This document shows positions 2,220-22,894 of a stretch of DNA of 64,000 nt, piece by piece; the first letter of the stretch is position 1, and each line of letters starts with the position of its first letter. The notes beneath the pieces are model-generated. The model did not search any database, had not been told where the DNA came from, and worked only from the letters and a program-made list of their open reading frames with translations. The stretch comes from a virus. The DNA is taken from positions 1 through 64,000 of IMG/VR virus record IMGVR_UViG_3300025655_000030; one strand, 5' to 3'. The position numbers and the translations under genes were made by a program.

Positions 2220-3009
2220 TATTTACTCCTATTATTCTATTAACTCCTATACTGAAATAATTGTCGTCCATCTCTATTCCAATAAACTTACGATTAAGGT
2301 TTTTAGCAGCTACGCCTGTTGTACCACTGCCCATAAATGTGTCTAAAACAGTTTCTCCCTCATTACTCCACGATTTTACGTGGTCTATTGCTAATTTGTC
2401 TGGAAATGTTGCAGGGTGTAGGATGCTCAGTTTGTCTTTTCTTGCGCCTCTCGGCAAATACCAAATGTTGATCTTTTGTTTATATTCTTTAACTACACCC
2501 TTTGCACTCCTATTACTCAGATCGTCTGAATCCTGCCTCATTGTGGCGGTTCTTTTCTGACCAAAGTTTGTTGTTTTTTCCATTAATGGATTGAAAGTGT
2601 CAGGTCTCCCCTTGCTAAAAATAAACATATACTCCCAGCATTGCTCATATCTGTTGTGAGTTTGCGGTGGCTTATTTGTTTGATAAATCATGGTATCATG
2701 CAAATTAAAACCACATTCCATAGCATATAAAGCTTGCTTAAAGCTTGTGCCGGTTTCGCTGCCTTTAATAGTGGCATCACCAACAACCCAGACGACAACC
2801 CCACCTTTTTTAGTCACCCTAAACAAATCAGACAATACGGATTTCCATACTGACTCATTCCATTTCTCGTTGTTTCCGTTGTAACTTCTTAGGTTATCAT
2901 ATGGTGGGGATGTGACTGTCAAATCAACACTCCCACTTTCAATTTCCTTCATCCTCTCTAGACAATCTCCTTTCATTAACCACATTTTATCATCTCTATA
3001 ATCAATCAT
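2212..3009 (-). CDS. DNA methyltransferase, beta-class (TSPPY)
   Basis: 265 aa. The catalytic motif IV is TSPPYDN (about residues 33-39) and the S-adenosylmethionine motif I is DTFMGSGTTG near the C-terminus, followed by GIEMD. Motif IV before motif I is the beta-class order. TSPPY is typical of N4-cytosine enzymes and some adenine enzymes, so the modified base is uncertain. No cognate restriction gene is next to it, so it is an orphan, probably protecting phage DNA from host restriction or marking it. It is the first gene of the leftward operon. The ATG follows AGGAGGAGT, with a sigma70-like promoter just upstream (3039-3066). Confidence 0.9.
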   Translation of the reverse strand: MIDYRDDKMWLMKGDCLERMKEIESGSVDLTVTSPPYDNLRSYNGNNEKWNESVWKSVLSDLFRVTKKGGVVVWVVGDATIKGSETGTSFKQALYAMECGFNLHDTMIYQTNKPPQTHNRYEQCWEYMFIFSKGRPDTFNPLMEKTTNFGQKRTATMRQDSDDLSNRSAKGVVKEYKQKINIWYLPRGARKDKLSILHPATFPDKLAIDHVKSWSNEGETVLDTFMGSGTTGVAAKNLNRKFIGIEMDDNYFSIGVNRIIGVNND

Positions 3010-3038
3010 TATTTACTCCTCCTAGTTAAACTTCACAT

Positions 3039-3066
3039 ATCTTACCATAACTTCTTTACCTGTCAA
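3039..3066 (-). promoter_or_regulatory. sigma70-like promoter for leftward methyltransferase/RNA-repair operon
   Basis: On the minus strand, TTGACA (3066-3061) is followed by a 16-base spacer and TAAGAT (3044-3039). The methyltransferase ATG lies 30 bases downstream with an AGGAGG site between. The -35 box is consensus and the -10 box is 4 of 6. Confidence 0.7.
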
Positions 3067-3119
3067 CCTTTTAAATACGCTTATTTTAAAATAATATCCT
3101 ATTAATAGTGAAATAGTTA

Positions 3120-3147
3120 TTGACAGATTTAATATACGTGTTAGAAT
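3120..3147 (+). promoter_or_regulatory. sigma70-like promoter P1, rightward
   Basis: TTGACA at 3120-3125, a 16-base spacer, and TAGAAT at 3142-3147. The surrounding 50 bases are nearly identical to the promoter at 3765-3792. No gene with a ribosome site follows for almost 700 bases, only structured sequence, so its product is probably RNA. Confidence 0.65.
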
Positions 3148-3153
3148 AAGAGT

Positions 3154-3360
3154 ATGGATAGAGATAAAACTCTTTTATGTGGTGAGTAAAACCATTGCGC
3201 ATATTAATCCATATTCCACTACAATGCAAGAGTGGATAGCGTTAGGGAGGAGAGTATTAATATATTCTCGGTTAAGAAACGCGATAGCCTGTATGACTGT
3301 TTAGAGTTGTATGAAAAGTCTTAACCTCCCCTAGTCTAAACAACTAGGTGTACGTAAACA
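3154..3360 (+). ncRNA. candidate structured RNA downstream of P1
   Basis: There is no credible reading frame here, but helices are dense. They pair 3215-3220 with 3231-3236 (TCCACT/AGTGGA), 3250-3257 with 3262-3269 (8 bp with a TAAT loop and one G-U), 3270-3277 with 3319-3326 (GGTTAAGA/TCTTAACC, perfect), and 3330-3335 with 3343-3348 (CCTAGT/ACTAGG). Two of them stack directly end to end. The block starts just after a consensus-like promoter. The 3' end is unclear, as no U-run terminator is visible. It could also be a replication or packaging signal in DNA. Confidence 0.35.
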
Positions 3361-3402
3361 AGTCACTAATTGATTTGTGGAAACTAAATATTTGGGAACC
3401 TC

Positions 3403-3633
3403 AAGAAGATATATTATCTTTCTAGTAAATTCTAATCTATTTTATGATAACTTCTATCCTAATCCTGCGTAATAAGTCATAGGGACTTTTCCATATTTTT
3501 ATGGTTGCTGGGTAGGGTAGCTTTTATCTAAAATTTAGAATTTCCTAAGAAGATATATTAAAGAATACTCTTAAAGAAGTAACTCTTAAAGAATAATATA
3601 TAAGAGTACTCTTAGTGGTCATAATACCACTAA
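3403..3633. repeat. AT-rich repeat cluster, possible origin or regulatory region
   Basis: AAGAAGATATATTA occurs at 3403-3416 and 3547-3560. ACTCTTAAAGAA occurs in tandem at 3567-3578 and 3582-3593 (period 15). A 14-bp perfect palindrome, TAAGAGTACTCTTA, lies at 3601-3614. It is followed by a TTAGTGGT/ACCACTAA hairpin at 3612-3633, and then two TATCTATTA copies. The block lies between divergent gene groups and has no gene. Iteron-like repeats in AT-rich DNA fit a replication origin, but this is inference. Confidence 0.4.
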
Positions 3634-3764
3634 AGGTTATATCTATTAAGATAATATCTATTATGATAACTATTAACTATTATCGGGTAGAATACTTATT
3701 TATATTATTACCAGTACAATATAATAGGTATATGAATTATTTTAAGGAAATAGTGAAATAGTTC

Positions 3765-3792
3765 TTGACAGGTTTAATATATGTGTTAGAAT
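3765..3792 (+). promoter_or_regulatory. sigma70-like promoter P2, rightward
   Basis: TTGACA at 3765-3770, a 16-base spacer, and TAGAAT at 3787-3792. The first gene, at 3828, follows directly. It is a close copy of the promoter at 3120-3147, including the upstream AATAGTGAAATAGTT and downstream AGAGATAAAA. Confidence 0.75.
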
Positions 3793-3827
3793 TATTATAA
3801 GAGTAGAGATAAAATAAAGGAAATAAC

Positions 3828-4022
3828 ATGAGTAGATGCCGTAGTTGTAACCGTAGACTAGAGGGTGAATTATTATCAACACTAGATAACGGAGATGTAG
3901 AAGATATGTGTTATGTTTGTCTAGGTCAAGTGTATAATGAATATAGTTATTTAGATGACCATGAGTACGTGCAGGGAAACCTTAAAGCAGGGTTAACTTC
4001 ACCTATTTTAACAAAAGAGTAA
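3828..4022 (+). CDS. small zinc-finger-like protein, 64 aa
   Basis: The protein starts MSRCRSCNRR and has CxxC at residues 4-7 and a second CxxC (CYVC) near residue 30, the spacing of a zinc ribbon. It is expressed directly from promoter P2, with AAAGGAA before the ATG. It is the first gene of the rightward unit and its own promoter resembles an early one. Small zinc-ribbon proteins of phages often bind nucleic acid or host proteins. The actual target is unknown. Confidence 0.75.
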   Translation: MSRCRSCNRRLEGELLSTLDNGDVEDMCYVCLGQVYNEYSYLDDHEYVQGNLKAGLTSPILTKE

Positions 4023-4030
4023 AATAAATG

Positions 4031-4059
4031 TTGACATGTATATTTTTATATGTTAAACT
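4031..4059 (+). promoter_or_regulatory. sigma70-like promoter P3, rightward
   Basis: TTGACA at 4031-4036, a 17-base spacer, and TAAACT at 4054-4059. It is followed by a short hairpin, ATTTAGT/ACTAAAT, at about 4087-4107 and then the 36-codon gene at 4137. It may also drive the structured RNA region beyond. Confidence 0.6.
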
Positions 4060-4136
4060 ATAGTATAGACAGTGAAAAAAGTTATTATTTAGTGTATTTA
4101 ACTAAATAGTGGTCAATTTGACTAATAGGAGTATTT

Positions 4137-4247
4137 ATGAGGGAAGAAGATTGGGGAGTTATTGATGGCTATCCTGATGCTAACCAAGATGGATATTTAG
4201 ATATTCACAGTGATGAGTGTGAACCACTTAGTACAGAAACTATTTAA
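4137..4247 (+). CDS. tiny acidic protein with EF-hand-like loop, 36 aa
   Basis: ATG at 4137 follows a good TAGGAG site seven bases upstream and lies about 75 bases after promoter P3. The protein is very acidic and contains DANQDGYLDIHSDE, which matches the spacing of an EF-hand or dockerin calcium loop (Asp1, Asn3, Asp5, Gly6, hydrophobic 8, Asp9). Whether so short a peptide binds calcium is unknown. The gene is real only if this ribosome site is used. No homologue is recognised. Confidence 0.5.
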   Translation: MREEDWGVIDGYPDANQDGYLDIHSDECEPLSTETI

Positions 4248-4266
4248 AATAGATACACAGGTATTT

Positions 4267-4343
4267 GCAGGTAACGATTGAAGACAGAGAGGATATTCTA
4301 GATAATACTTGAGTCGAGTGGTTTAACTCCACAACCTGCTCCA
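4267..4343 (+). other. tRNA-like element (degenerate)
   Basis: This 77-base stretch has a 6-bp terminal helix (GCAGGT/ACCTGC), one unpaired T and an encoded CCA end. It also has a 4-bp stem with the 7-base loop TTTAACT, close to a T-arm. The D-arm lacks its GG and the anticodon stem is poor (loop TTCTAGA), so it is not a normal tRNA. It may be a decayed tRNA or a tRNA-like domain at the 5' side of the structured RNA block. Confidence 0.25.
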
Positions 4344-4355
4344 ATTTAAAATAAA

Positions 4356-4885
4356 ATAATTATAATCTGCCGAATGAGTTTGACGAAATGTGCGATCATT
4401 CCACTTGAAAAGGAGATTGTAATTATACTTACAGCAACACCCTTCCAGCTACCCATAAGAACAGCTCCCTGCTTAGGGTTACTCTTTAATATAATATTTT
4501 GAGTCTAATATAAGAAACATTAAGACACTTGTAATTGTAAAGGTTCTCATTAACAAACTGGTATTATATTATAATTGTGTATATGTAGGTATCCAAGAGT
4601 GTGTAATTCCTATAAATGTGCCTACCTAATCCTCTAAGTATAATGGGGAGAGCTAATAGCTTAGTGTGGGGTTAAATGACAGAGTTTGCAGCGGCATATA
4701 CACAATAACTATTTCCAACAAAACTACTACACTTCCTTATAGTGCATCCTTAGTAGTTATCCTCAAAACCTGCCCACAGAACAACTATCATAGCGTAGGT
4801 TCCCCTTTAAGGTAAGTAAGGAATATTACATTCCCCCTATTAAGTCCCTCCTCCTGCTTAGTGGCTTACCTTATTTTTTATTTTA
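4356..4885 (+). ncRNA. candidate large ornate non-coding RNA (~0.5 kb)
   Basis: No gene fits here. Pairings seen: 4356-4368 with 4414-4426 (13 bp, one G-U), enclosing 4372-4377 with 4396-4401; 4487-4496 with 4562-4571 (10 bp), enclosing a GTCT/AGAC stem; 4575-4585 with 4695-4705 (11 bp, perfect), enclosing 4586-4591 with 4623-4628; 4722-4729 with 4751-4758, enclosing CACT/AGTG; 4767-4771 with 4797-4801; and 4809-4816 with 4865-4872 (AAGGTAAG/CTTACCTT), enclosing 4820-4824 with 4830-4834. The last stem is followed by a T-rich run like an intrinsic terminator. Size, phage location and a tRNA-like neighbour resemble GOLLD or ROOL RNAs, but no family signature was confirmed. Promoter P3 could supply transcription. 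Confidence 0.5.
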
Positions 4886-5049
4886 TATCGTCATTGTATT
4901 GATTGATTACTATCTCATGCAGTGGTTGATAAGTAGGTATTTTATAAGTTTTGACTGTTAAATAATTTATCACAACAGCACAAAACTACATCAATCAACT
5001 AAACAATATTTGAATCGACACGTTCGATAACAGAATTAAGGGGTAACAA

Positions 5050-7239
5050 ATGGCAATTTTTAAGGCGTTAGCCAATAAAATCACATCGGAATCCGGTGCA
5101 GATGTAACAAAATGGATTGATGATGACGGGTCAAGAGCGCTTGTATCACAACCAACAAATTTGCCACAATTTGATGGCACTGTCGTGTCATTTGTTAGAG
5201 CTAACGCTAATCAAATGTTTTTGCAAAATGACATTATCCCGCCCCTGTTGTCACAGACAGGAATGCCAAATGGGGCGCAAGGCGAGAACAGCAGCGGCGG
5301 TTTTACTTGTACAGGTTTAGACCGATTAGCAAACGGTAATTGGATAGTCGGCAATCACGGGATGAGCAGTGGAGCAGACCCAACACAAACACCGTCCATA
5401 GTAATATTAAATCCAGCCAGAACAGCTATAGTTGCAGAGTTCGATATGAGTGGAGCCATATTAGCCAATGGTGGCTCAATTCAGGGTGTCGCGGTTGCAG
5501 CAGATGGAACTTATTATGTTGCGGCAAGTGGCGCAAGCCTAATTCTTCATATAGATACTGATGGTTCAAAGCTTGGCGAAATAGCAGCAACAGACGTTAA
5601 CGCTTTAGCTTACGATGCTACTCGCCACGGCTTGTGGTGGAAAGATGACACAAATGCAACTTTGCATTTTTATGATCTTACTACTAGCGCAGAAATCACA
5701 GAAAATAACTTTAGCGTGTCAGGCGGCATTGACCATATAACTGTCACCGATGATGGCTACTTATTAGGTACAATTGGCGCTAATGGCGTGCAGGGAATTG
5801 TGCTTTGCTACGACACGCAGACGAAAGTTAAAGTTGGTAGATTAATTGAGTTAGAAAACTGTCAAGCCATTGAGGGCATTCACTACGACTCAACAACAAA
5901 AATTATAACTATTGCGAACGATGGTGGTTTTCATACTGAATCAACACCACCGATTAGTATATCTCTAACGTATGACGCTAGTGAGTTAATTTTAAGCCGT
6001 ACAAATTTTCTAGGGTTACACGGTAAAATAACACTAACGGGTGCAGCGCCAAGTAATCGTGAATTGATTATTGGGCATGAAAAAGCAGAGTCTAGCGCAC
6101 CCGATGTTGGTTGGGCTTTGTATGGAATGAGCAACAATAAATTAAGACTGCAAGTGTTAAGCCAAGACGGTAATCAAATTGTTTTGCGCGAGTGGTCTGT
6201 CACTAGAGGCGTAGAGTTTAGTTTTAGCATTTACTGTGATATTGACACAAACACAATTTATGGTGAGTTTGACGGGGTAGAAGTAGCGCCAAGCGGTACA
6301 ACGCTCAGCAGTCCATCGGCATTGATTGATGGTATGAATTCTGACTATTACTCAGTAGGTGAGCAGGCGACTGATACCTTTCCCGCGTCATTCTCAGTTA
6401 AGTCACTAGGCGTATCAACTAGCCTTGCCGAGTTCAATCAATTAGCAACTGACATACAAGTCGACCCAATTAGTAACACAGCGCCATCTGTCCCAACACT
6501 GTCAGCATCTAGCACAAGCCTAGCGGCAGGCGGCACGGCAACGCTAACTGCATCAAGTACCGATGCAGAAAACGACAGTATAACGTTTAACTGGTCAACT
6601 GACGCAGGAATATTAAGTTCGACAACTGGCAACAGCGCTGTATTTACAGCGCCAAGCGGTTCGAGTGCTGTTACTGCAACGATTAGCTGCACGGCTTCGG
6701 ATGGTGAGCTAACCAGTTCAGCGGGTACGATTAGTATTGATGTAGCGGCAGTTGTCATACCCGACACGATAAAACCCGTCATAAATCTTGTACCAAGCAC
6801 TTTGGTTTACAACCTGACAGTTGGTGATACGTTCACACTACCAACAGCTACATTGACTGATAATGTTGATTCAACAATTAGTATAAGTCCTGTCAGTAAT
6901 ACAGTTAACACTACTTTATCAGGTACTTATTCAGTAGTATATGCAGGATACACAGATTCTTCTGGTAATATAGCGGATAGTGTAACTATAACTGTTAATG
7001 TATCCCCTGAGATTCAATCTACAACTTCGGTATCTATCATAGATATTCCAGATGGTACTTATAGTTGTATATTCTTAGACGCAGTATCTGGGGAATTGAT
7101 TCTTAAAGCAGATTTAGAATTCATAAGTGAATTATCGGAAACAGTCACTTTGCCTGTATCATCTGGTACTAATTATGAAGTAGCTGTTAAAAACAATCCT
7201 TTAACTCATTACACAGGTAAACTAGGAGTAACAGTTTAA
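5050..7239 (+). CDS. large beta-propeller / Ig-like domain protein, probable virion or adhesin protein
   Basis: 729 aa without a signal peptide. Residues about 85-310 read as repeated propeller blades (LDRLANGNWIVGNHG, TVTDDGYLLGTIGANG), like SMP-30 or SdiA-regulated folds. Residues about 310-480 look like a concanavalin/LamG-type lectin sandwich. Residues about 480-570 form a PKD/cadherin-like domain. Residues about 575-655 form a DUF5011-type Ig domain (DNVDS, GTYSVVYAGYTDSSGN). The first 1.7 kb is visibly richer in G+C (gcg, ggc, cgc codons) than the rest and than neighbours, which suggests recent acquisition. The ATG follows AAGGGG. A host-recognition or surface-binding role is inferred from the domain types. 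Confidence 0.7.
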   Translation: MAIFKALANKITSESGADVTKWIDDDGSRALVSQPTNLPQFDGTVVSFVRANANQMFLQNDIIPPLLSQTGMPNGAQGENSSGGFTCTGLDRLANGNWIVGNHGMSSGADPTQTPSIVILNPARTAIVAEFDMSGAILANGGSIQGVAVAADGTYYVAASGASLILHIDTDGSKLGEIAATDVNALAYDATRHGLWWKDDTNATLHFYDLTTSAEITENNFSVSGGIDHITVTDDGYLLGTIGANGVQGIVLCYDTQTKVKVGRLIELENCQAIEGIHYDSTTKIITIANDGGFHTESTPPISISLTYDASELILSRTNFLGLHGKITLTGAAPSNRELIIGHEKAESSAPDVGWALYGMSNNKLRLQVLSQDGNQIVLREWSVTRGVEFSFSIYCDIDTNTIYGEFDGVEVAPSGTTLSSPSALIDGMNSDYYSVGEQATDTFPASFSVKSLGVSTSLAEFNQLATDIQVDPISNTAPSVPTLSASSTSLAAGGTATLTASSTDAENDSITFNWSTDAGILSSTTGNSAVFTAPSGSSAVTATISCTASDGELTSSAGTISIDVAAVVIPDTIKPVINLVPSTLVYNLTVGDTFTLPTATLTDNVDSTISISPVSNTVNTTLSGTYSVVYAGYTDSSGNIADSVTITVNVSPEIQSTTSVSIIDIPDGTYSCIFLDAVSGELILKADLEFISELSETVTLPVSSGTNYEVAVKNNPLTHYTGKLGVTV

Positions 7240-11874: not shown

Positions 11875-12633
11875 ATGCACAATACCGAAAAAATAGATAT
11901 AGAGAAAGCTGAATCCTCTCCTAGTCCTTCTACCACTAGACTGAAACTTGGGGAGATTGGTTCACCTAATGTTAAGACTATAGGTGGATTAATTAGAGAG
12001 GAGGCTAGGAAAGACTTGCAATTTCCAAGATGTCTTACTACATTTGATGAAATGAGGCAAGACGCCACAGTAGATGCTGGATTAACTGTTAACGAAGTAT
12101 TCTTGACTAAAGCTATGATGGGGATGAAGTGGAAAGTAGGTGAATCTGGTAGTGAACTTTCAAAGAGTTATGCTGATGCACTGAACTGGAACTTTAAGAA
12201 CTTTGACCAACAGACTTGGTATCAGATTATAACATCCGTTATTACATATCAACAGTATGGTTTCTCTTGGTTAGAGAAAGTCTACACTAAGAATAAAAGT
12301 AAAAGTCACCCTATCTTAAAAAATAAGATTAAGAAACTAGCCACTAGGACACAAAAGAGTGTTGCTAAGTGGGAGTTTAGTAAGGATAAACGGGAGTTGT
12401 TAGGGGTATGGCAAAAGCCTGAAACTTCAATAGACACGTTATTTCCTAGTGCTGTTAATATTAATAATCAGCTTGATACCTACATTCCTAGATATAAATA
12501 TATGTTATTTAGTTGGGATGATAAAGGTGGTAATCCTCAAGGTAAGTCGTTATTAACAGGTTGCTTTAGGGCATATAAAGAAAAAAGTATGATAGCCTCT
12601 TATGAGGTTGTTGGTGTAAGTAAGGACATGGGT
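11875..12633 (+). CDS. portal protein (DUF935-type), exon 1 of 3
   Basis: 253 codons. They include the GGLIREEAR and MRQDATVDAGL segments typical of Mu gp29/DUF935-like portals. The frame runs into a stop right after the exon, but continues after removal of a group I intron. The 5' splice site is placed after GGT at 12633 because exon GGGT can pair with intron GCCC (12645-12648) to form P1, as in T4 td. The full spliced protein is 503 aa (759+216+537 bases). The portal forms the dodecameric DNA entry ring at one capsid vertex. Confidence 0.85.
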
Positions 12634-12965
12634 TAACTATAATCAGCCCCTTAATGAAGAAATTTATTAAGCAAATCTATCTAATTCAGTGGAAACCTCT
12701 ATAGAGACAATACTGAGCCAAAGCCTTAAAGACGAAAGTATACCTATTAATAGGAATGAGCTTTTTTAGTGTGGAAGACGGTAAACACACAGGTTAGGTG
12801 CAACGACTATCCCGCAAGGGAGTACATCACAAGCTATTGGTGGTGGAAATGGTAGAAACCTAAACATTAAGTTGTAGGTTAAGATATAGTCTAATCTATA
12901 TGGTGACATATAGCAGTTCATAAGAGAACGATTAACAATGTAGCGATTGTTAGTGAATACAAATG
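12634..12965 (+). ncRNA. group I intron 1 in portal gene (332 nt, no ORF)
   Basis: The core carries the td-like strings CAACGACTATCCCGCAAGGG and AAGATATAGTC, which form P7, followed by a P9-type hairpin around CTATATGGTGACATATAG. The preceding exon ends in U and the intron ends in G at 12965. Removing it joins GACATGGGT to GGATTACTT in frame (phase 0). It has no endonuclease gene. The 3' half is nearly identical to portal intron 2 (13182-13547), so the two are paralogues. Confidence 0.85.
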
Positions 12966-13181
12966 GGATTACTTGTCCTTCGCGTACCAACAGATATTAT
13001 AAATAAAGCTGCTGAAGACCCTACTTCAGACGAAGCTAAATCACTCCAGAACCTTCAAAAGAATGCCGCTAATGTACATGCTGGGGATCAGACTTATATC
13101 CTCTTAGGAAGCGATACGTTAGATAATGGAGGTACTTCTAAATACTCTTATGATATAGAACTTAAGGGGATTGATGGTAGT
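12966..13181 (+). CDS. portal protein, exon 2 of 3
   Basis: 72 codons starting GLLVLRVPTD and ending KGIDGS, with stops in frame on both sides. It is framed by two group I introns. The region corresponds to the portal core of DUF935-like proteins. A local ATG at 12963 is not a real start, because its G belongs to the intron end. Confidence 0.85.
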
Positions 13182-13547
13182 TTGTAAATAAGCTACACTT
13201 AGTAGAAATACTATGAACAAATAACTCATTTAATTGCTGGAAACTCTCGTTAGATTTTGTATACGATACTAGGTAGTGATACACTAGCGACCCGTAAAAA
13301 TTACAAAAATAGAGACAATCAGCAGGTAAGAGTCTAATATTACAGTAAAGAATTCTTGAACGCAATATTAAAATGATATTAGACTTGACTTCAACGACTA
13401 TCCTGAAAGGGAGTACACTCAAGTGAGTGGAAATGGTGAGAACCTAAACATTAAGTTGTAGGTTAAGATATAGTCTGGTCTATATAGAGATATATAGCAG
13501 TTCATAAGAGAACGGGTAGTGATTAACGACCACTATTGAACACATCG
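13182..13547 (+). ncRNA. group I intron 2 in portal gene (366 nt, no ORF)
   Basis: Exon GGTAGT can pair with intron GCTAC (13191-13195) to form P1. The core has AATTGCTGGAAAC (P), GACAATCAGCAGGTAAG (Q/R) and AAGATATAGTC (S), with P7 through CAACGACTATCC. The 3' end is G at 13547, giving GATGGTAGT joined to GGAAAACAA in frame. It has no endonuclease gene. About 110 bases of the 3' half match portal intron 1. Confidence 0.85.
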
Positions 13548-14084
13548 GGAAAACAATACAAAACCTCTGAATTAATCAATGAACGTAAGAAAGCTATCTT
13601 AGACACTCTAGGTGCAGGTTTCCTAAACTTAGGGAATGATGGTGTAGGTAGTTATGCCTTATCGACAGGTAAACAATCCCTACATGCTTTCTATATGGAA
13701 AGACATTTAATGTTCATCAAGTCAGTATTTGAAAATGACTTAATCCCTCAATTAGCTGAAATTAATGGTTTAGCCTTATCAGAAGATGATATGCCTACAT
13801 TAACATTTGGTGAGATTGATGAACCTGACTTAGATGTACTAAGTAAGGTCGGACAGAGGCTTGGATCTGCTGGGTTAATACCTAAAGAGAAAACCTTACT
13901 ACTAGAATTCTGGAAACAGTTCGGACTAGATACTTCTGCATTAAAAGATATGTCTCAAGAAGAATTATTTGAACTACTTACCCCTGAAACATCAAGGGCT
14001 GGGGAAAGTGGTGGTTCAAGTGGAACAGGTGGTACTCAGTCCGGTGGAGCAAGTAGCTCTTTAAATTCAGATAATGCAGCATAG
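13548..14084 (+). CDS. portal protein, exon 3 of 3
   Basis: 179 codons including the stop. It begins GKQYKTSELI and contains a LGAGFLNLGNDGVGSYAL segment characteristic of DUF935-type portals, then VLSKVGQRLGSAGLIP and a glycine/serine-rich tail. The stop overlaps the region just before the protease start. An apparent TTG start at 13536 lies inside the intron and is not used if splicing occurs. Confidence 0.87.
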   Translation, partial: GKQYKTSELINERKKAILDTLGAGFLNLGNDGVGSYALSTGKQSLHAFYMERHLMFIKSVFENDLIPQLAEINGLALSEDDMPTLTFGEIDEPDLDVLSKVGQRLGSAGLIPKEKTLLLEFWKQFGLDTSALKDMSQEELFELLTPETSRAGESGGSSGTGGTQSGGASSSLNSDNAA

Positions 14085-21650: not shown

Positions 21651-22535
21651 ATGAATCAAGGTAACTTAGAAAAGTTTATTATTGACTTAGGATTTTCTGA
21701 TAAGAAAGCCATAACAGGATTAAAATCTTTCTTAAAGAAAGTTGATAATATGAAAGCTAATGTCAAAGTTAATGTTGACAAGAGTTCATTAAATAAAATA
21801 TCTAAAGATATTAAGTCTGCTACTGGGTCTGTAGTAAACCCTTTAAAAATGTCTCCTGAGATGAGTAGCCATGTAAGTAAGTTTCGTAAGAGTGAGGCTG
21901 AGAAACAATTAGCTCATGAGAAAGCCTTACATCATGAACGTAAAAGAAATATAGCCGCTGAGAAAGCTCAAAGGGAAAGAGCTGATAGGTTTAAGAATAG
22001 TTCATTATATCGTAGGATAGCTGATTCAGACCCATCTAGGGCAGAGAGATACTACCAACAAGCTAAGACTGTTAGAGGCAGTAATACACAGTTTGGGACA
22101 TGGCAGACTGATATTAGAAATGCAGAGAAAGCATTAGGAACATTCAACCGAAAACTTAAACAAACAACTGTCATACAAAGAGGATTATCTGACTCTACAA
22201 GAAATATGATAAGGTCATATGCTAGTGTCTATGCTTTAGGTGCTGGAGGTATGGCAATCAATAAGGTAGGTAGAACGTTTGAAGGTGCTGCTGCTGCTAT
22301 GAAAGCTGTCAGTACTGACTCTAAGGAAGCAGAGGCTAACTTAAAGTTTTTAAAAGACGAAGCTAAAAGGTTAGGTCTTGGAGTAGGGGAATCTACTAAG
22401 AACTTTGTTAAGTTAAGAGCTGCAATAGGTGACAAAGCTAGTAATGAGGAAGCTAGGAAAGCTTTTACAAACTTATCTGAAACAGGTACAGTATTTCAGT
22501 TAAGGCCAGAGGAAATGAACAGAACGATTAAGGCT
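21651..22535 (+). CDS. tape measure protein, exon 1 of 2
   Basis: 295 codons. It begins with a 30-residue segment, then a long basic helical region (EKALHHERKRNIAAEKAQRE), a short glycine-rich hydrophobic part (YALGAGGMAINK) and the conserved FKFLKDEAKRLGL-like block seen in lambda-type tape measures. It ends RTIKA at the intron. The spliced protein is 598 aa. At about 1.5 angstrom per residue, a tail near 90 nm is expected, which is a rule-of-thumb inference. Confidence 0.85.
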
Positions 22536-22894
22536 TAATGTTAGGCTCATACATTAGTGATAATGTAAAGAAAACTGGTTTAATTGCTGGAAAGCCCTTA
22601 GAGCTTGTAGATACTAAACAAATATGATAATATGTATTTGTGGCTTAAGAGTAATGTCTTAAGGTATAGTTATAAGTCTACAAGATTGGGTGATCAGCAT
22701 CCACGTTGTCTACTAGAAAGAATTCATAAATAGAGTAGGCATCAGGATCAACGACTATCCGCAAGGAGTAGGCTCAAGTGAGTCGAAAATCCAGCCCTCA
22801 TAAGAGGTGAAGATATAGTCTCTACTTCTATGGAAACATAGAGATGCAAGTAATGTTGCTGGGTGTGATTAACGACCACATTTGAAGATAATAG
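22536..22894 (+). ncRNA. group I intron in tape-measure gene (359 nt, no ORF)
   Basis: The core strings are AATTGCTGGAAAG (P), GATCAGCATCCACG (Q/R), CAACGACTATCC with GGAGTAGG (P7 5' side) and AAGATATAGTC (S), then a P9 hairpin around CTATGGAAACATAG. The exon ends in U at 22535 and the intron ends in G at 22894. Splicing gives IKA-VQQMFSKSG, which restores the conserved QMFSK motif of tape measures. It shares the 3' string GATTAACGACCAC with portal intron 2. Confidence 0.87.

What the first reader, a model, noticed from the sequence alone, without database searches (positions are those of the whole stretch)
4250..4890. A ~0.5 kb highly structured non-coding RNA candidate with a terminator-like end and a tRNA-like neighbour
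640 bases without a credible gene contain at least eight long complementary pairings, three of them 10-13 bp and nested or serial rather than overlapping, closed at the 3' end by AAGGTAAG/CTTACCTT and a T-run. A tRNA-like 77-base element ends just before it. Size, phage location and tRNA association resemble the ornate large RNA classes GOLLD and ROOL, but no class motif was confirmed. It could be a new large RNA class or a divergent member. The pairings are seen; the function is unknown.
Basis: partly seen in the sequence, partly recalled or inferred. Interest (0 to 1): 0.78.

Follow-up and report, generated by a model that had tools for sequence, protein, structure and literature searches.

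The report
Orphan phage RNA beside tRNA relic
A non-coding stretch of a marine-type phage has its own promoter-like start, a tRNA-like piece and several unusually long base-paired stems, so it may make a structured RNA, but no relative of it was found anywhere and its function is unproven; sister phages do carry a clearly conserved, undescribed large RNA next to odd tRNAs in the same kind of place.

Summary
The long stems are real: three perfect stems of 9-12 bp within 160 nt against 0.48 expected in shuffles, none of 200 reaching it. Total folding energy does not exceed shuffles (z about 0; -1.2 with short spans), so 'highly structured' is only half right. Rfam has no match, GOLLD and ROOL included. 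The tRNA-like neighbour is a half: acceptor stem, T arm and CCA at 4267-4343, the only such geometry in the window (0.08 expected), but not callable as a tRNA. A good sigma-70-like promoter (4031-4059) and a 36-codon ORF precede it. No homologue was found in phages, plasmids, relatives or, by two exact probes, viral contigs, so covariation cannot be tested. In sister phages (L002, L004, L011, L047) noncoding DNA mixed with tRNAs holds a conserved RNA of ~0.4-1 kb absent from Rfam, plus a D-armless pseudoknotted tRNA-Arg-like molecule with compensatory changes; the window RNA is not a member. Best reading: an early-type phage transcript with a tRNA-like module and an orphan ~0.5 kb RNA. Plausible, unproven.

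The parts
4031..4059 (+). sigma-70-like promoter TTGACA-N17-TAAACT with TG before the second hexamer
   Evidence: 10 of 12 consensus positions; consensus match only
4137..4247 (+). 36-codon ORF with an AGGAG-type ribosome site, no relatives found
   Evidence: read from sequence; no tblastn match in phages, no PHROG
4267..4343 (+). tRNA-like element: 6-bp acceptor stem, T arm with loop TTTAACT, T-CCA end; one long extra arm instead of D and anticodon arms
   Evidence: not called by ARAGORN or Rfam
4356..4426 (+). domain closed by a 13-bp stem (with G-U)
   Evidence: local z -3.6
4451..4480 (+). hairpin ACCC.TAAG../..CTTAGGGT
   Evidence: MFE structure
4487..4571 (+). domain closed by a 12-bp A+T-rich stem (with G-U)
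   Evidence: energy not above shuffles (z -0.5)
4574..4706 (+). 133-nt domain closed by ATTGTGTATATG/CATATACACAAT
   Evidence: 12 bp Watson-Crick; a stem this long is reached in 1% of shuffles; energy z -0.8
4722..4758 (+). hairpin AACTACTA-CACT/AGTG-TAGTAGTT
   Evidence: local z -4.5
4808..4885 (+). terminator-like end: TAAGGTAAG/CTTACCTTA enclosing two hairpins (one loop CCCUCCUCCU), then T-rich tail
   Evidence: not a standard intrinsic terminator

Best explanation
A short plus-strand phage transcription unit starts at the promoter near 4031-4059, reads a 36-codon leader ORF and then makes a non-coding RNA that ends near 4885. The RNA has a tRNA-like module (acceptor, T arm, CCA) at its 5' part, which tRNA processing enzymes of the host could cut out, followed by a chain of domains each closed by a long A+U-rich stem and ending in a branched stem with a U-rich tail. 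It stands in the noncoding DNA between leftward and rightward genes, the kind of place where relatives carry tRNAs interleaved with large conserved RNAs. I think it most likely acts during infection as a stable RNA connected with the phage's tRNA biology (a tRNA mimic or decoy plus an accessory structured RNA). Shown: anatomy, stem excess, tRNA-half geometry, context in sister phages. Inferred: transcription, processing and any function.
For: Stem excess over shuffles. Promoter-like sites on the + strand at 3120, 3765 and 4031, ahead of the two noncoding stretches and of the small ORF between them. The tRNA-half is the only hit of its geometry on either strand of the 64 kb, expected 0.083 by chance; the same scan finds real tRNAs in relatives. 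Sister phages: promoter-like sequence, tRNAs and 400-1000 nt of conserved noncoding RNA. An RNA ligase of the T4 Rnl1 family, known for tRNA repair in T4, is encoded about 3 kb away.
Against: No total fold-energy excess. No homologue, so no covariation. Models of the sister RNAs find nothing convincing in the window; the model of the odd tRNA gives 12.3 bits on the tRNA-half, a score that apparent chance hits elsewhere exceed. No expression data. In the syntenic sister phages the RNAs lie on the strand opposite to the terminase gene, unlike here.
Confidence: 0.45

Rival explanations
1. Decayed remnant: a former tRNA/ncRNA island of the kind seen in sister phages, now a degenerate tRNA plus spacer whose surviving stems are old processing signals and a terminator.
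For: tRNA-half without D or canonical anticodon arm; no homologue; no energy excess; sister phages have whole tRNAs in comparable noncoding DNA.
Against: A perfect 12-bp Watson-Crick stem and others are kept, and decay would break them first; a good promoter and a terminal stem remain; phages seldom keep 0.6 kb of dead DNA (general knowledge).
Confidence: 0.33
2. DNA-level element (replication origin or regulatory hub) at the switch between leftward and rightward genes; the inverted repeats act as DNA.
For: Position at the strand switch, where cumulative GC skew has a local minimum; the neighbouring stretch 3160-3740 is rich in inverted repeats and folds well on both strands.
Against: GC skew here simply follows gene direction; relative to shuffles the region folds better on the + strand than on the - strand; tRNA-half, promoter and U-run point to RNA.
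Confidence: 0.12
3. A divergent GOLLD or ROOL RNA.
For: Phage, tRNA-like neighbour, long stems.
Against: No match to either model at E <= 5 on 3000-5060; many GOLLD members exceed 800 nt (PMC12286853).
Confidence: 0.02

Closest known systems
GOLLD and ROOL RNAs (PMC12286853)
   Same: Large non-coding RNAs of phages, often near tRNA islands; function unknown.
   Different: No match to the Rfam models; no conserved pseudoknots or intermolecular loops could be shown; orphan sequence.
Unnamed tRNA-flanked RNA of sister phages L002, L004, L011, L047 (found here)
   Same: Same phage lineage (terminase about 56% identical for L002, L004 and L011), noncoding DNA with tRNA or tRNA-like module, long A+U-rich stems.
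   Different: No sequence or model match in the window; opposite strand relative to the terminase gene in the three with a terminase.
Phage tRNAs that evade tRNA-targeting defences (PMC10264068, PMC11555353)
   Same: Phage-encoded tRNA-type molecules; a T4 Rnl1-type RNA ligase sits nearby.
   Different: The window element has no readable anticodon arm, so it could be a mimic or relic, not a replacement tRNA.

Membership tests
GOLLD (Rfam) | match to the covariance model | tested here: not met
ROOL (Rfam) | match to the covariance model | tested here: not met
Group I intron (Rfam RF00028) | catalytic core model match | tested here: not met
   the model does match elsewhere in the window (12624, 13172, 22525)
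tRNA (Rfam RF00005) | four-arm cloverleaf with anticodon loop | tested here: not met
   only acceptor, T arm and CCA present
Sister-phage RNA (models R1, R2) | match to models built from L002, L004, L011, L047 | tested here: not met
D-armless tRNA-Arg-like RNA of sister phages (model R3) | anticodon arm with CTTCTAA loop plus V-loop pseudoknot | tested here: not met
   12.3 bits, carried by acceptor and T arm; two apparent chance hits elsewhere score 18-21 bits
Large structured RNA class | covariation in homologues | not testable with these tools
   no homologue found
Large structured RNA class | folding energy below shuffled controls | tested here: not met

The most novel reading that the evidence does not exclude
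The window RNA is one lineage-specific form of a fast-changing group of large tRNA-linked phage RNAs, of which the L002/L004/L011/L047 RNA with its D-armless, pseudoknotted tRNA-Arg(UCU)-like companion is the conserved branch; the group couples tRNA-like molecules to ornate RNAs, perhaps against tRNA-targeting host defences.
Probability: 0.15. Interest if true: 0.8.

Novelty: new variant of a known kind. Interest (0 to 1): 0.45.

Why it matters
If real, it adds an unrelated sequence to the small set of large tRNA-linked phage RNAs whose job is unknown, and the sister phages give a conserved, tractable version (four sequences, compensatory changes) in which the question can be tested, together with a tRNA form that lacks a D arm.

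Tried and rejected
Sequence homologues: blastn in phages and plasmids, search of relatives' whole contigs, two exact 18-mers in viral contigs: none convincing. Tail gene and RNA ligase as anchors found no relatives in viral contigs; the terminase alignment found none in genome contigs. The next noncoding stretch 3040-3830 also has no convincing phage match. Short nucleotide matches between the window RNA and L004/L002 were judged chance or promoter similarity. Hits of model R3 in the contigs of L059 and L055 look like chance (L055's lies almost wholly within an annotated CDS; no tRNA-like feature was seen by eye at L059). Local z-scores of hand-picked pieces are not used as proof. H101's noncoding stretch matches short pieces next to ORFs between what look like split genes in two other phages, possibly intron remains; not followed.

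Full report
Setting. The window is bases 1-64000 of a 70,150-base viral record. Genes left of 3009 run leftward, genes right of 3828 rightward; between 3009 and 5050 there is only one ORF of at least 55 codons, a 64-residue protein with two Cys pairs at 3828-4022. The nearest cultured relatives by terminase are Pseudoalteromonas phages H101 (52.5% identity) and HM1 (48%).

Observation. The long serial pairings are present as described, and long perfect stems are in excess of shuffled sequence. The total fold energy is not. As a calibration on the same test, the conserved RNA of sister phage L002 scores z about -6 and that of L004 -1.5 to -2.6, while another conserved piece of L002 scores only -0.2 to -0.8: so a flat z does not exclude a real RNA, but it is no support. 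The neighbouring stretch 3160-3740 scores z about -4 on both strands; it lies outside the finding.

Anatomy. A promoter-like site (4031-4059) precedes a 36-codon ORF (4137-4247), then a tRNA-half (4267-4343), then domains closed by long stems, a hairpin at 4722-4758 and a branched stem with a T-rich tail at 4808-4885. The tRNA-half has a 6-bp acceptor stem, a 4-bp T stem with loop TTTAACT and T-CCA. A scan for exactly that geometry finds it once on both strands of 64 kb, against 0.083 expected, and finds tRNAs in relatives. The scan was written after the element was known, which weakens it.

Relatives. Terminase searches gave L002, L004 and L011 (56-57% identical). L047 was brought in by a shared RNA motif. 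In L002, L004 and L011 a stretch upstream of the terminase, on the opposite strand from the terminase, and in L047 a comparable stretch, holds tRNAs or tRNA-like elements mixed with noncoding RNA whose main shared blocks are 71-82% identical between pairs, with both-sided changes in predicted pairs (7 of 83 for L002/L004, 3 of 42 for L002/L011). Rfam finds only tRNAs there at its gathering scores; a lenient scan of L047 adds only sub-threshold matches. Models R1 and R2 find the sequences they were built from with high scores and nothing significant in the window.

An odd tRNA. L002, L011 and L047 carry an ~88-nt tRNA-Arg(UCU)-like molecule in which only 9 nt separate the acceptor from the anticodon arm, so no D arm fits. 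The 5' linker CCCAC/CCCGC pairs with GTGGG/GCGGG inside a variable-arm loop, whose own stem GAC/GTC or AGC/GCT also covaries; both together form a pseudoknot. All 24 pairs are kept in all three sequences, 11 with changes on both sides; slid controls reach 2 at most. L002 and L011 are near-identical here, so in effect this is one comparison of two types. Rfam gives it only 34 bits as tRNA-Sec, below the cut-off of 47. It is not part of the window, but it shows that this phage group carries non-standard tRNA forms, which makes the tRNA-half in the window less likely to be an accident.

Verdict. The candidate is worth keeping as an orphan structured RNA beside a tRNA relic or mimic; it is not a GOLLD or ROOL by any test made here, and its function is not shown.

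Noticed in passing
L002:3234-3323 (-), L011:6123-6210 (-), L047:6992-7079 (+): D-armless tRNA-Arg(UCU)-like RNA with a V-loop pseudoknot; 24 of 24 pairs kept in three sequences, 11 with compensatory changes.
   Followed up: partly
L002:2100-3160 (-), L004:3600-4000 (-), L011:4660-5634 (-), L047:7200-8250 (+): Conserved tRNA-flanked noncoding RNA of about 0.4-1 kb absent from Rfam.
   Followed up: partly
window:3160-3740: Second noncoding stretch with strong inverted repeats, fold z about -4 on both strands; promoter-like sites at 3120 and 3765 lie in an 85% identical 66-bp repeat.
   Followed up: partly
L009:6819-7210, L020:5940-6030, L042, L043: Repeated ~95-nt element (TGCAG-loop ACCC-CTGCA ... 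GGGTT, pseudoknot-like by eye) upstream of tRNAs in Pseudoalteromonas phage HM1 and relatives.
   Followed up: no
L047:6822-6906; L002:3140-3217 (-); L002:2701-2817 (-): tRNAs or tRNA-like elements with oversized anticodon loops or inserts (ARAGORN calls the first tRNA-Stop, anticodon tta).
   Followed up: no
window:12624-12913, 13172-13497, 22525-22843: Three group I introns by Rfam; the first two lie between ORFs 11875-12636 and 13536-14084, both matched in order by relatives, so they may be parts of one split gene.
   Followed up: no
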